From Zoogloeaceae bacterium (GTDB lineage: Bacteria > Pseudomonadota > Gammaproteobacteria > Burkholderiales > Rhodocyclaceae): a DNA stretch of 36,052 nucleotides. Both the position numbers and the translations under genes were made by a program. Under the pieces are notes generated by a model. That model did not search any database. It was not told the DNA's origin and saw nothing but the letters and a program-made list of their open reading frames with translations. Shown here piece by piece: positions 368-5,761 of the stretch. The stretch is from NCBI GenBank assembly GCA_031259605.1, contig JAIRLE010000039.1, positions 1 to 36,052 on the forward strand, in the 5' to 3' direction. The number at the start of each line of letters is the position of its first letter. Position 1 is the first letter of the stretch.

Positions 368-1498
368 TCATTCCCACGCCAGGCTTCCCCCCGTCTGATA
401 TTCCGTGACTCTCGTCTCGAAGAAGTTTTTCTCTTTTCGCAGATTGGCCTGTTCATCCAGCCAGGGCAGCGTGGCTTGCGCACCGGGGAAGGGTTCGTCG
501 AGGCCCATCTGGCGGGCGCGGCGGTTGGCGACGAAGCGGAACTGGCCCAGGTGCAGGTCGGCGGAATAGCCGAGGATGGCTTCCTGTAAAATGTAATGGG
601 CATAAGCTTCTTCCGTCGCGTCGGCCTCTGCCCAGAGTTCGGCGACGGCTTTCGGGTCGAGCGTCAGGTTTTCCTCGTGCATCAGTTCGCGGATGACGCG
701 CAGGCCGAAGGCGCAGTGCAGCACCTCGTCGCGCATGATGTACTGGAACTGTTCCGCGGTACCCTTCATCAACCCGCGCCGTTGCAGGGCGAAGATGGGG
801 GAAAAGCCGTTGTAGAACCAGCAGCCCTCGAAAATGCCGGCGAAAAAGAGATAGGACAAGGCAAATTCGTGCAGGGTGTCCCGGTCGCTCAAATCGAGGT
901 CGGAGCGCAGGATTTTTTCCAGTCTCCGGTTGGCGAGCACGATCTTGCCGTGGATGGCGGGCACCACCCGGTAACGGTTGTAGATTTCCTCCTGCTCCAG
1001 ATTCAGGGTTTCGATGCAGTGCTGGTAGGTCCAGGTGTGCAGGGCTTCCTCGAAGACCTGTCGCGCCTGGTAGATCTGCAATTCCGGCGCAGTCATCTTT
1101 TCCATGACCGCGAGACCAATGTTGCGCATGGCGAGGATGTCCGAGGTGGTGAGATAGGCGAGCACGTTCTCGAACATGTGCCGCTCCGCCGCCGTGAGCT
1201 TGTGGTGGTAATCCTGCACATCCTGCGCCATGTTGATTTCCGTGGGCGCCCAGTGATTGCGGTTGGCTTTCAGGAAGAATTCCCAGGCCCAGGGATAGCG
1301 AAAAGGCGCGAGCTGATTGATGTCGCCGTGGCCATTGACCACGCGCTTGTCGGCGGCTTTCACCGGGGCAAGGCCGCCGCCGGGGGGAGCGACGGATTCG
1401 GCGGCGGTCGCGGGTGCGAGGGTAGTCCGGACGGGCGCTTCGGGGGCGGCAACCGCAGGGGTGGGCGCATCGTCCCAGTCATCGAAAAAGGCGTTCAT
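368..1498 (-). CDS. nrdB: Class I ribonucleoside-diphosphate reductase, beta subunit
   Basis: 376 aa. E-x-x-H-x-x-x-Y (EALHTWTY) keeps the metal ligands and the radical Tyr spacing; DEVLHCAFG motif. Strong AGGAGA RBS upstream of ATG. Confidence 0.95.
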   Translation of the reverse strand: MNAFFDDWDDAPTPAVAAPEAPVRTTLAPATAAESVAPPGGGLAPVKAADKRVVNGHGDINQLAPFRYPWAWEFFLKANRNHWAPTEINMAQDVQDYHHKLTAAERHMFENVLAYLTTSDILAMRNIGLAVMEKMTAPELQIYQARQVFEEALHTWTYQHCIETLNLEQEEIYNRYRVVPAIHGKIVLANRRLEKILRSDLDLSDRDTLHEFALSYLFFAGIFEGCWFYNGFSPIFALQRRGLMKGTAEQFQYIMRDEVLHCAFGLRVIRELMHEENLTLDPKAVAELWAEADATEEAYAHYILQEAILGYSADLHLGQFRFVANRRARQMGLDEPFPGAQATLPWLDEQANLRKEKNFFETRVTEYQTGGSLAWE

Positions 1499-1648: not shown

Positions 1649-2383
1649 TCATGAGCACTGTCCGACACTTCTGGTCTGCCGCGGATGTTCCGGGCAGCCG
1701 AACAGGTAAAACGTGCCATTGTGGAACAATTTTTCATGAATCACCGTGCCCGGCAATTGCAGGATCAGGCGCATGGGTTTTCCACACTGGTCGCAACGCG
1801 GCTTTTCGGGACTCTGAATCCAGGCGGGGGCAAGGCCGATTCGCGCCTGGTTGATGGGGTCGAATTCAAAGCTCGCGCTACCGGCGCACAGGAGATAAGA
1901 GAGCAGGTCTTCGGGATATGCCGGACAAACGGCGCTCAAGGCCGGACGCAACGCGGGGATATTCTGGATGAGCCGCCTGGGAGAAAAGATGTTCCGTCCC
2001 TTATGCCGTGGAACCGGCACGATCCGGTATGCGCGGCCAAGAAGCGTCGGCGCGGAAACTCGCGCGTCCACGAAATGAAATTCCACCTCCTTGTGGGACG
2101 TCACCTCGATCACCTTGCCGCTCCAGGGGAATCCGGAAAAATCCTCCGGAACCGGCACCAGACAACGCGCCTCGTCCGTTTCGGCATTTCCGCGGGCAAG
2201 CACGTAACCGCCCGGAGATGACGCGCAAAACGTGTCGATGCACGCATAGATGCCTTCCAGTTGTCCGGGCGCGGACGCCGCGACGCACCGGGCGATATGG
2301 CGTCGCTTGCGATTGAACCGGAAAAGGGGAATCCCCAGCGCCGCCATGGCGGCCAGGAGAAGGATGGCAATGAGCGCTTTCAT
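1649..2383 (-). CDS. Hypothetical membrane-anchored protein with C-terminal CxxC putative zinc knuckle (possibly DUF1963/YwqG-like)
   Basis: 244 aa. N-terminal hydrophobic segment MKALIAILLLAAMAALGIPLF. C-terminal ...PAWIQSPEKPRCDQCGKPMRLILQLPG resembles the W-x-Q/CxxC/M-x-QL pattern of YwqG-like proteins. Same strand as nrdA and nrdB. Confidence 0.6.
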   Translation of the reverse strand: MKALIAILLLAAMAALGIPLFRFNRKRRHIARCVAASAPGQLEGIYACIDTFCASSPGGYVLARGNAETDEARCLVPVPEDFSGFPWSGKVIEVTSHKEVEFHFVDARVSAPTLLGRAYRIVPVPRHKGRNIFSPRRLIQNIPALRPALSAVCPAYPEDLLSYLLCAGSASFEFDPINQARIGLAPAWIQSPEKPRCDQCGKPMRLILQLPGTVIHEKLFHNGTFYLFGCPEHPRQTRSVGQCS

Positions 2384-2573: not shown

Positions 2574-5387
2574 TCACTGGCACGCCTCGCAATCCGGATT
2601 GTCGATGGAACAAAAGCGCGGCGCTTCGGCATACGCTTCTGATTCCTGATCCCTGATTTCCGATCCCTGATCCAGCTTTTCCGCCTGCGAAGCGCCCAGG
2701 GTGCGCAAGTAGTAGGTGGTCTTCAGGCCCTTCGTCCAGGCGAGTTTGTAGAGTTCGTCCAGTTTCTTCCCGGAAGGCGCGGCAAGATAGAGGTTCAGCG
2801 ACTGCGCTTGATCGATCCATTTCTGCCGTCTCGATGCGGCTTCCACCAGCCATTTTGGGTCGATTTCAAAGGCGGTGGCGTAGCGTTTCTTCAAGTCTTC
2901 CGGCACCCGGTCGATGCGGGCGATGGAACCGTCGAAGTACTTCAGGTCGGCCACCATCACCGTGTCCCACAGACCGTGTTCCTTCAGTTCGCGCGCCAGA
3001 TGTTCGTTGATGATGGTGAATTCGCCGGAAAGATTGGATTTCACGTAGAGATTCTGGTATTCCGGCTCGATGCCTTGCGAGACGCCGACGATGTTGGAAA
3101 TGGTTGCGGTCGGGGCAATGGCGACGCAGTTGGAATTGCGCATCCCCACTTCCCGGATGCGGGCGCGCAGGCGTTCCCAATCGAGGGTGGCGCTTCTGTC
3201 CTGGTCGATGGGCGCGCCGCGTTCGGCTTCCAAAAGCGCGATGGAATCGAGCGGCAGGATGCCTTGATCCCACAGGCTGCCGGGAAAACTCGAATAGCGC
3301 CCGCGCTCCACGGCGAGATCGGTGGAGGCCCAGTAGGCCAGATAGCAGACGGTTTCCATCGCGCGGTCGGCAAAGAGCGCCGCTTCTTCCGAGGCATAGG
3401 GCAGGCGCAAGAGATGCAGGCAATCCGAAAAGCCCATGATGCCCAGACCCACGGGTCGATGGCGCAGATTGGCGGCTCTCGCCTTGGCGGTGGCGTAGAA
3501 ATTGATGTCGATCACGTTATCCAGCATCCGCATGGCCGTGCCGATGGTGCGGGAGAGTTTTTCCATGTCGAGCCGCCCGTCTTTCAAGTGCGCGGGCAGG
3601 TTGATGGAACCCAGGTTGCAGACGCCGGTTTCCGCATTCGAGGTGTTGAGGGTGATCTCGGTGCACAGGTTGGAACTGTGCACCACGCCCGCGTGTCGCT
3701 GCGGCGAGCGCAGGTTGCAGGGGTCCTTGAAGGTGATCCAGGGATGCCCGGTCTCGAAAAGGAGCGTGAGCATACGCCGCCAAAGCTGCACGGCGGGCAG
3801 CTTGCGAAAGAGCTTGATCTCGCCGCGCGCCGCCTTTTCTTCGTAAGCGAGATAACTTTGCGCGAAGGCGCGCCCGAATTTTTCGTGCAGATCGGGCGTC
3901 TCGTCGGGGGAAAAGAGCGTCCATTCGCCGTTTGCCAGCACCCGTTCCATGAACAGATCGGGAATCCAGTGCGCGGTGTTCATGTCGTGACAGCGGCGGC
4001 GCTCGTCACCCGTGTTCTTCCTCAGTTCCAGGAATTCCTCGATGTCCAGGTGCCAGGTTTCCAGATAGGCGCAGACCGCGCCCTTTCGCTTGCCGCCCTG
4101 ATTGACCGCCACCGCCGTGTCGTTGACCACCTTCAGGAAGGGAATCACGCCCTGGCTCTTGCCGTTCGTGCCCTTGATGCGGCTGCCCAGCGCGCGGATT
4201 GGCGTCCAGTCGTTGCCCAGGCCGCCTGCGTATTTTTGCAGCAGGGCGTTTTCCTTCAGGCTCTGGTAGATGTCCTCCAGATCGTCGGAGACCGTGGTCA
4301 GGTAGCAGGAGGAAAGCTGGGAATGCCGGGTGCCGGAATTGAACAGGGTCGGCGTCGAGCACATGAAATCGAAACGGGAAATGAGATCGTAGAATTCGAT
4401 GGCGCGCGCCTCCCGATCAATCTCGTTCAACGCCAGCCCCATCGCCACGCGCATGAAGAAAATCTGCGGCAGTTCGATGCGGCGCTCCTCGATGTGCAGG
4501 AAATAGCGGTCGTAGAGGGTTTGCAGGCCGAGGTAGGTAAATTGCAGGTCGCGCCCGGAATCGAGCGCCGCCGCGAGACGTTCGAGGTCGAATTCGGCAA
4601 GGCGGGGATCGAGGAGTTCGGTTTCGACGCCCAGTCTCACGAAACGGGGGAAATAATCCTTCATTGCCGCTGCCGCCGTTTCCGGGGAGATTCCCTGGCC
4701 GGTTTCCCGTCCGAGTACCTCCTCGCGCAGCGCGAAGAGGGTAAGCCGCGCCGTCACCTTGTCATAGACCGGGTCCTGCTCGATCAGGGTGCGCGCGGCG
4801 AGGGTGAGCGCCGTGTAGACCTCGGAGAGCGGCATGTTGTCGTAGAGATTCTTCAGCGTCAGTTCCAGCACGGCCTCGGCGTTGGCCTCGTCCATCCCGT
4901 CGCAGGCGGAGGCAAGACGCGCGCGCAGGGCGGCGACATCCAGCGGACGCCGCTCGCCCGCCACGGTGACATGGATGCCGGAATCGGTCGTCTTGCTCTG
5001 CCGGGCTTCCTGAGCGGCGCGTTCCTCGGCGCGGCGCTCGCGGTAGAGCACGTAGGCGCGCGCCACATCGTGCTCGCCCGCGCGCATCAAGGCCAGTTCC
5101 ACCTGATCCTGTATCGTTTCGATATGCACCGTGCCGCCCGCCGGACGACGGCGGATCAGGGCTTCCACCACATTGCGGGTCAGACGCGCCACCACCTCCC
5201 GAACACGGACGGAAGTGGCGCTCTGCGCGCCTTCCACGGCGAGGAACGCCTTGGTCAGGGCAAGCGCGATTTTTTCGGATTGAAAGGCGGCAATCGCCCC
5301 GTTGCGGCGAATGACTTCCAGACTGGCGGTATGCGCCTCGGCGGCTTCCTCTGTGGCGTTCCCCGGAACTGATGAATTGTGCGGCAT
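2574..5387 (-). CDS. nrdA: Class I ribonucleoside-diphosphate reductase, alpha subunit (apparently two N-terminal ATP-cone-like segments)
   Basis: ORF to 5498, but the likely start is MPHNSSVPGNATEE (ATG 5387), downstream of the riboswitch. ATP-cone-like LEVIRRNGAIAAFQSEKIALAL and a second related segment; STPTLFNSGT, SSCYLT, NLCTEI and NCVAIAPTATIS motifs; C-terminal DCEAC redox pair. Confidence 0.95.
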   Translation of the reverse strand: MPHNSSVPGNATEEAAEAHTASLEVIRRNGAIAAFQSEKIALALTKAFLAVEGAQSATSVRVREVVARLTRNVVEALIRRRPAGGTVHIETIQDQVELALMRAGEHDVARAYVLYRERRAEERAAQEARQSKTTDSGIHVTVAGERRPLDVAALRARLASACDGMDEANAEAVLELTLKNLYDNMPLSEVYTALTLAARTLIEQDPVYDKVTARLTLFALREEVLGRETGQGISPETAAAAMKDYFPRFVRLGVETELLDPRLAEFDLERLAAALDSGRDLQFTYLGLQTLYDRYFLHIEERRIELPQIFFMRVAMGLALNEIDREARAIEFYDLISRFDFMCSTPTLFNSGTRHSQLSSCYLTTVSDDLEDIYQSLKENALLQKYAGGLGNDWTPIRALGSRIKGTNGKSQGVIPFLKVVNDTAVAVNQGGKRKGAVCAYLETWHLDIEEFLELRKNTGDERRRCHDMNTAHWIPDLFMERVLANGEWTLFSPDETPDLHEKFGRAFAQSYLAYEEKAARGEIKLFRKLPAVQLWRRMLTLLFETGHPWITFKDPCNLRSPQRHAGVVHSSNLCTEITLNTSNAETGVCNLGSINLPAHLKDGRLDMEKLSRTIGTAMRMLDNVIDINFYATAKARAANLRHRPVGLGIMGFSDCLHLLRLPYASEEAALFADRAMETVCYLAYWASTDLAVERGRYSSFPGSLWDQGILPLDSIALLEAERGAPIDQDRSATLDWERLRARIREVGMRNSNCVAIAPTATISNIVGVSQGIEPEYQNLYVKSNLSGEFTIINEHLARELKEHGLWDTVMVADLKYFDGSIARIDRVPEDLKKRYATAFEIDPKWLVEAASRRQKWIDQAQSLNLYLAAPSGKKLDELYKLAWTKGLKTTYYLRTLGASQAEKLDQGSEIRDQESEAYAEAPRFCSIDNPDCEACQ
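2637..2672. repeat. Short degenerate tandem repeat inside the 3' end of nrdA
   Basis: tctgattcctgatccctgatttccgatccctgatcc; translated on the minus strand as DQGSEIRDQESEA in the NrdA C-terminal linker. Confidence 0.5.
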
Positions 5388-5504
5388 GTTTTCCAATACT
5401 CCCCGTAGGCGTGTGGCAAGCGGGGGGGACTGGCGGATGGCGCGCGGCAAGCCGCGAAAAGCCACCGTCCGGAAAGACGCCCCGCTTCCCGAAGACAATC
5501 AAAA

Positions 5505-5661
5505 TGCGCGGCAGGTTTCCTGGCTCTCGGGTCGCCGCCTTGCGCCCGCCTTCCCGGAAAAGTCCAGTGACAGGACATGGCCTCGAATGACGCAAGACTC
5601 GCCGACTACAGTTGCGGGGGCAGCTCCGGCATGAAGACCATAAAATCCACCGGATTCCCTT
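5505..5661 (-). promoter_or_regulatory. Cobalamin (B12) riboswitch in the nrdA leader
   Basis: Minus strand: AAGGGAATCCGGTG…GCTGCCCCCGCAACTGT…GTCACTGG…GGGAAGGCGGGC…GACCCGAGAGCCAGGAAACCTGCCG. The B12 box GAGCCAGGAAACCTGCCG (5526-5509) fits the rAGYCMGgAgaCCkGCcd consensus. Confidence 0.93.
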
Positions 5662-5677
5662 GACCGCGCGAGGGCGA

Positions 5678-5706
5678 AGTCTAGGAGTGAGGCGAAACAC
5701 TGTCAA
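5678..5706 (-). promoter_or_regulatory. Sigma70-type promoter for nrdA
   Basis: Minus strand TTGACA (5706-5701), 17 nt spacer, TAGACT (5683-5678), immediately upstream of the riboswitch. Confidence 0.75.
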
Positions 5707-5714
5707 GGAGAAAA

Positions 5715-5730
5715 ACACAATATATAGTGG
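5715..5730. promoter_or_regulatory. NrdR box 1
   Basis: acacaatatatagtgg matches the NrdR consensus acaCwAtATaTwGtgt at 15/16 positions. Confidence 0.85.
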
Positions 5731-5745
5731 TTTGTTGATTAGGAT

Positions 5746-5761
5746 CAACTAGATATAGTGC
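5746..5761. promoter_or_regulatory. NrdR box 2
   Basis: caactagatatagtgc keeps the core CtAgATaTaGtg. Start lies 31 bp from box 1, about three helical turns. Confidence 0.8.

What the first reader, a model, noticed from the sequence alone, without database searches (positions are those of the whole stretch)
5505..5661. Cobalamin riboswitch in front of a class I (B12-independent) ribonucleotide reductase operon
A near-consensus B12 riboswitch, including a B12 box that fits rAGYCMGgAgaCCkGCcd, sits in the leader of nrdA, whose enzyme does not use B12. The known logic, described for Streptomyces nrdAB, is that B12 shuts off class I RNR when a B12-dependent class II enzyme (NrdJ) can take over. 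This predicts an nrdJ elsewhere in this genome and a B12-driven switch between RNR classes. The 117-nt gap between the B12 box and the likely ATG has a CGCGG-CTTG-CCGCG hairpin but no U-tract, so control may be translational.
Basis: partly seen in the sequence, partly recalled or inferred. Interest (0 to 1): 0.75.

Follow-up and report, generated by a model that had tools for sequence, protein, structure and literature searches.

The report
B12 riboswitch on ribonucleotide reductase genes
A genuine vitamin-B12-sensing RNA switch sits in front of the genes for a B12-free DNA-precursor enzyme, most likely shutting them off when B12 is available so that a second, B12-using enzyme found elsewhere in the same genome takes over; this is a known regulatory logic, shown here in a lineage of betaproteobacteria.

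Summary
Confirmed. Rfam's cobalamin riboswitch model matches window 5683..5493 (minus strand) over its full length at 87.6 bits (gathering score 31.5), just upstream of nrdA (5387..2574); nrdB lies downstream. The prediction of a second RNR holds: the genome encodes a B12-dependent NrdJ on another contig, no class III RNR, two further cobalamin riboswitches (one before btuB), a PduO-type adenosyltransferase, and no CobS. It probably scavenges B12.

New here: beyond the Rfam model, a 9-bp hairpin (P13, 5493..5468) carries a CGGGG loop complementary to aptamer loop L5 (CCCCG). Loop and stem recur in relatives, with compensatory changes in 6 of 7 stem pairs. P13 nucleotides are also complementary to a C-rich strand that can pair with the Shine-Dalgarno sequence, so control is probably translational (not proven). 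NrdR boxes lie upstream of both nrdA and nrdJ.

All 26 riboswitch-bearing NrdA found form one supported clade, and all 26 hosts have NrdJ. The logic is already known (Streptomyces nrdABS; Propionibacterium nrdAB and nrdDG; delta-proteobacterial nrdDG), so this is a new member of a known kind.

The parts
5746..5761 (-). NrdR box 2 (GCACTATATCTAGTTG, 12 of 16 to consensus)
   Evidence: consensus scan, spacing 31 bp to box 1
5715..5730 (-). NrdR box 1 (CCACTATATATTGTGT, 15 of 16)
   Evidence: consensus scan; nrdR gene present
5678..5706 (-). sigma-70-like promoter TTGACA-17-TAGACT, placing the transcript start at the aptamer's 5' edge
5493..5683 (-). cobalamin riboswitch aptamer (RF00174, full-length match; short or missing P2)
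   Evidence: 87.6 bits, E 1.6e-20; 2.5e-22 in the whole genome
5611..5624 (-). aptamer L5 region GCTGCCCCCGCAAC, kissing partner of L13
   Evidence: sequence; conserved in every leader examined with at most one change
5510..5526 (-). B12 box GAGCCAGGAAACCTGCC
5468..5493 (-). P13 hairpin, 9 bp, loop L13 CGGGGCGU (5484..5477)
   Evidence: covariation in 6 of 7 pairs, 0/500 shuffles for the covariation score
5480..5487 (-). AAGCGGGG, antisequester strand (part of P13/L13)
   Evidence: 8 contiguous pairs with 5425..5418; in the centroid fold
5443..5456 (-).
   Evidence: not seen in the leaders printed
5418..5425 (-). CCCCGCUU, pairs either with P13/L13 (on) or, through CCCCG, with the Shine-Dalgarno sequence (off)
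   Evidence: MFE and centroid folds show the two alternatives
5399..5404 (-). Shine-Dalgarno GGGGAG
   Evidence: sequence
2574..5387 (-). nrdA, class I RNR large subunit, 937 aa with ATP cone
   Evidence: NF005544 1650.7 bits (cut-off 965); PF02867, PF00317, PF03477
1649..2383 (-). ORF of 244 aa between nrdA and nrdB, no family match, absent from 80 related loci
368..1498 (-). nrdB, class I RNR small subunit; apparent metal ligands and radical tyrosine present
   Evidence: NF005550 345.1 bits (cut-off 309)

Best explanation
The nrdA leader is a cobalamin (most likely adenosylcobalamin) off-switch. When the cofactor binds the aptamer, loop L5 (CCCCG) kisses loop L13 (CGGGG) and locks the P13 hairpin. 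That frees the C-rich strand 5425..5418, which pairs with the Shine-Dalgarno sequence, so NrdA (and probably NrdB) translation falls and the B12-dependent NrdJ supplies deoxynucleotides. Without B12, P13/L13 nucleotides (AAGCGGGG) instead pair with CCCCGCUU, leaving the Shine-Dalgarno sequence free and class I RNR on. NrdR adds a separate nucleotide-sensing layer on both nrdA and nrdJ. Shown by sequence: aptamer, P13/L13, both RNR classes, riboswitch on nrdA only. Inferred: direction of response, ligand identity, translational mechanism.
For: RF00174 hit. NrdA and NrdB identified. NrdJ present without a riboswitch. P13 covariation: 85% of cells paired, 6 of 7 pairs with changes on both sides, covariation score 0.575 against a shuffled mean of 0.239, and higher than every slid control. 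L13 CGGGG invariant in the 19 aligned rows. Two competing folds, one with the antisequester helix and one with CCCCG paired to the Shine-Dalgarno region. No conserved terminator. All riboswitch hosts have NrdJ. The published model for E. coli btuB and env8 is that L5-L13 stabilises P13 and promotes the RBS hairpin (PMC10653944).
Against: Sequester and antisequester helices in the window are not stronger than composition shuffles (p 0.64 and 0.23), and the leader's fold is no more stable than shuffles (z -0.21). Forcing P13 changes the modelled Shine-Dalgarno accessibility little in the window (0.23 to 0.19). A weak terminator-like hairpin overlaps the 3' arm of P13 in the window only. No expression or binding data.
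Confidence: 0.8

Rival explanations
1. Same B12-off logic, but by transcription: ligand binding leads to intrinsic or Rho-dependent termination in the leader, as reported for Streptomyces nrdABS (control of transcription) and inferred for Propionibacterium acnes nrdAB.
For: A terminator-like hairpin CGTCTTTCCGGACG-GTGGCTTTTC overlaps the P13 3' arm. Leaders are long (about 60-160 nt from P13 to the Shine-Dalgarno sequence in most), which leaves room for Rho loading. P. acnes nrdAB transcription appears to stop before the first gene (PMC3848588).
Against: Most relatives have no terminator-like site in this stretch and those found sit at differing places; the candidate is a 5-pair stem with a broken T run. 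Rho-dependent termination cannot be judged from sequence.
Confidence: 0.2
2. A decayed riboswitch that no longer regulates nrdA.
For: Window aptamer scores lower (87.6 bits) than most relatives, has four non-standard outer pairs in the Rfam P1 alignment and lacks P2.
Against: Core, B12 box, L5 and a 9-bp P13 are intact; the sister L035 (84.7 bits) shares the same form, so it has persisted through divergence (about 79% NrdA identity); P13 pairs covary across the clade.
Confidence: 0.04
3. The switch senses B12 to serve functions other than RNR exchange (for example general corrinoid status), with NrdJ co-occurrence reflecting ancestry only.
For: NrdJ is nearly universal in the family (60 of 61 genomes, counting fragments), so 26 of 26 is weak as independent evidence; ten family genomes hold both NrdA and NrdJ without a riboswitch on nrdA.
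Against: Riboswitch on the B12-independent enzyme and not on NrdJ matches the RNR-exchange logic reported for other phyla. Among the other 36 named genomes searched, 16 lack NrdJ, and none of these has a B12 box near nrdA.
Confidence: 0.1

Closest known systems
Streptomyces coelicolor nrdABS B12 riboswitch (Borovok et al. 2006, cited in PMC4991794)
   Same: Cobalamin riboswitch on a class Ia RNR operon; B12-dependent NrdJ elsewhere in the genome
   Different: Control reported at transcription; different phylum; no nrdS here; the expression platform here looks translational
Propionibacterium acnes nrdAB and nrdDG leaders (PMC3848588)
   Same: Cobalamin riboswitches on B12-independent RNRs and not on nrdRJ, with NrdR as a second layer
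   Different: There most nrdAB transcription seems to end early; the window genome has no NrdD
delta-proteobacterial nrdDG B12 elements (PMC545781)
   Same: B12-independent RNR preceded by a B12 element in genomes with NrdJ; same isozyme-replacement logic proposed
   Different: Class III RNR rather than class I
E. coli btuB / env8HyCbl translational corrinoid riboswitches (described in PMC10653944)
   Same: L5-L13 kissing loop stabilises P13 and is reported to promote an RBS hairpin
   Different: Regulates nrdA here, not the transporter; the window's antisequester is inferred only

Membership tests
Cobalamin riboswitch (RF00174) | Covariance-model score above gathering threshold | tested here: met
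   87.6 against 31.5 bits, full-length match
Cobalamin riboswitch (RF00174) | B12 box and conserved core | tested here: met
   GAGCCAGGAAACCTGCC; GTCACTGG (one change from GCCACTGG); GCTGCCCCCGCAAC
Cobalamin riboswitch (RF00174) | L5-L13 kissing loop coupling aptamer to expression platform | tested here: met
   CCCCG/CGGGG complementarity and covarying P13 stem; the kissing pairs themselves do not vary, so they have no covariation support
Cobalamin riboswitch (RF00174) | Binds a cobalamin and changes expression | not testable with these tools
   needs in-line probing and reporter assays
Translational off-switch | Ligand-stabilised sequestration of the Shine-Dalgarno sequence | tested here: inconclusive
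   alternative folds exist but helices are not beyond composition shuffles in the window
Intrinsic-terminator (transcriptional) riboswitch | Hairpin plus U-tract conserved downstream of P13 | tested here: not met
   one weak site in the window, not conserved
Class I RNR (NrdAB) | NrdA barrel with curated family match, NrdB with metal ligands and radical tyrosine | tested here: met
   NF005544 and NF005550 over cut-off; D/E/H ligands and Y seen in the alignment with relatives
B12-driven RNR class exchange (Streptomyces type) | B12-dependent NrdJ in the same genome, itself without a cobalamin riboswitch | tested here: met
   NrdJ at G000:C43; riboswitches only at C15, C19, C145

The most novel reading that the evidence does not exclude
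A cobalamin riboswitch and class I nrdA have been inherited, and perhaps transferred, as one unit within a single betaproteobacterial NrdA clade, mostly with its own NrdB type, under joint NrdR and translational B12 control, giving these bacteria (including a probable B12 scavenger) a two-input switch between RNR classes.
Probability: 0.35. Interest if true: 0.45.

Novelty: new member of a known kind. Interest (0 to 1): 0.35.

Why it matters
It extends B12-controlled exchange of ribonucleotide reductase classes to a clade of Rhodocyclaceae-type betaproteobacteria, including cultured genera (Azospira, Dechloromonas) where it can be tested directly. In a probable B12 scavenger the switch would tie the choice of DNA-precursor enzyme to vitamin supplied by neighbours.

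Tried and rejected
Intrinsic termination: weak and not conserved. Composition-shuffle tests of the sequester and antisequester helices in single leaders: mostly not significant, so only the covarying P13 is claimed firmly. Link between B12 auxotrophy and keeping nrdA: none (NrdA in 7 of 17 genomes without CobS and 19 of 44 with it). Class III RNR in the genome: none found. The Rodionov 2003, Vitreschak 2003, Nahvi 2003 and Borovok 2006 papers are not held in full.

Full report
Observation. Rfam's cobalamin model matches 5683..5493 on the minus strand over all 189 positions (87.6 bits, E 1.6e-20). In the whole genome (2.36 Mb draft, 93.7% complete, 210 contigs) it is one of three such matches; the other two precede a TonB-dependent-receptor-like frame (C15) and btuB (C19; both gene names are read from the translations, not from a family search). 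Downstream of the window's riboswitch lies nrdA (ATG 5387, 937 aa; NF005544 at 1650.7 bits against a cut-off of 965), then an unknown 244-aa ORF, then nrdB (NF005550 over its cut-off).

Prediction of a second RNR. The genome holds one other RNR large subunit, at C43, matching the adenosylcobalamin-dependent NrdJ model at 592 bits (cut-off 400), better than the class I models. No NrdD was found. Neither CobS nor CobA/CobO/BtuR was found but a PduO-type adenosyltransferase was. With btuB this suggests import and adenosylation of B12 rather than synthesis; two missing marker families in a 94%-complete draft are suggestive, not proof. NrdR is encoded, and box pairs with 31- or 32-bp spacing precede nrdA (15/16 and 12/16 matches to a consensus taken from memory) and nrdJ (12/16 and 11/16). 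A TTGACA-17-TAGACT promoter ends where the Rfam match begins.

Expression platform. Rfam's model ends before it. Directly after the B12-box region the window has a 9-bp hairpin with loop CGGGGCGU, and every riboswitch-bearing nrdA leader compared has the CGGGG motif in a hairpin downstream of its B12 box (L126 and L128 were assigned by eye, and L079 was read). CGGGG is complementary to the conserved L5 CCCCG, matching the published L5-L13 kissing loop (PMC10653944; PMC9600662). On 19 ungapped sequences, 6 of 7 stem pairs show changes on both sides; the covariation score is 0.575 against 0.239 in shuffles (0 of 500 as high) and at most 0.318 when the partner strand is slid. Shuffles do not keep relatedness, but the slid controls do. 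The kissing pairs do not vary, so covariation cannot test them.

How it would control nrdA. AAGCGGGG of P13/L13 can form 8 contiguous pairs with CCCCGCUU (5425..5418), and the overlapping CCCCG can pair with CGGGG of the Shine-Dalgarno region (5405..5401). One fold contains each: the centroid the first, the minimum-energy structure the second. In the Dechloromonas-like leaders (L037-L040, L118) a strong hairpin hides the Shine-Dalgarno sequence (modelled accessibility 0 to 0.17). In single leaders most of these helices do not beat composition shuffles, so the sequester/antisequester step is inferred. No terminator is conserved.

Distribution. Of 80 named NrdA loci, 11 have a B12 box with core just upstream (all but L036 rechecked with Rfam, and L036 is the same genome region as L115/G020, matched); a twelfth (L079, Thauera) has the riboswitch further upstream, before an extra ORF. 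In one genome per genus of the window's family, 26 of 61 have NrdA, and by coordinates 15 of these have a cobalamin riboswitch within about 0.5 kb upstream. The leaders of the other 11 have no Rfam match. In a 104-row NrdA tree all 25 rows labelled as riboswitch-bearing, plus L079, form one clade (SH-aLRT 99), needing only two label changes against 22.5 in shuffles. All 26 distinct hosts have NrdJ, L038's in fragments. NrdJ is near-universal in the family, so the association is weak there; outside the clade 16 of 36 named genomes lack NrdJ, and none of those has a B12 box near nrdA.

Relation to known work. B12 riboswitches on B12-independent RNRs are reported for Streptomyces nrdABS (PMC4991794 citing Borovok 2006), Propionibacterium acnes nrdAB and nrdDG (PMC3848588) and delta-proteobacterial nrdDG (PMC545781), with the same isozyme-replacement reasoning. 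I found no paper in the held library on this riboswitch in Rhodocyclaceae-type bacteria, but the primary comparative papers are not held, so prior listing there cannot be excluded.

Noticed in passing
window 368-1498 and loci L035-L114: NrdB of most riboswitch-clade operons is about 78-88% identical to the window's, whereas NrdB beside all other betaproteobacterial NrdA (and beside riboswitch-bearing L056 and L094) is only about 37-43% identical although NrdA stays near 68-72%: the small subunit seems to have been exchanged within the clade.
   Followed up: partly
window 1649-2383: A 244-aa ORF between nrdA and nrdB has no family match and no counterpart in 80 related loci.
   Followed up: partly
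L043 and L051 (both in G069): One genome carries two NrdA: one in the riboswitch clade with the riboswitch, one outside it without.
   Followed up: partly
G019:C3, G027:C1, G031:C1, G033:C147, G037:C38, G058:C59, G059:C11: Cobalamin riboswitches lie just upstream of 723-805-aa frames that begin with an ATP-cone-like match, probably class III nrdD; not checked with an NrdD model.
   Followed up: no
G004:C111 and G041:C4: NrdJ matches are split within frames of 1364 and 1352 aa, as an intein or other insert would give.
   Followed up: no
window 5683-5650 and L035: The window and its closest relative lack the P2 hairpin that most riboswitches of the clade have; L128 may lack it too.
   Followed up: partly
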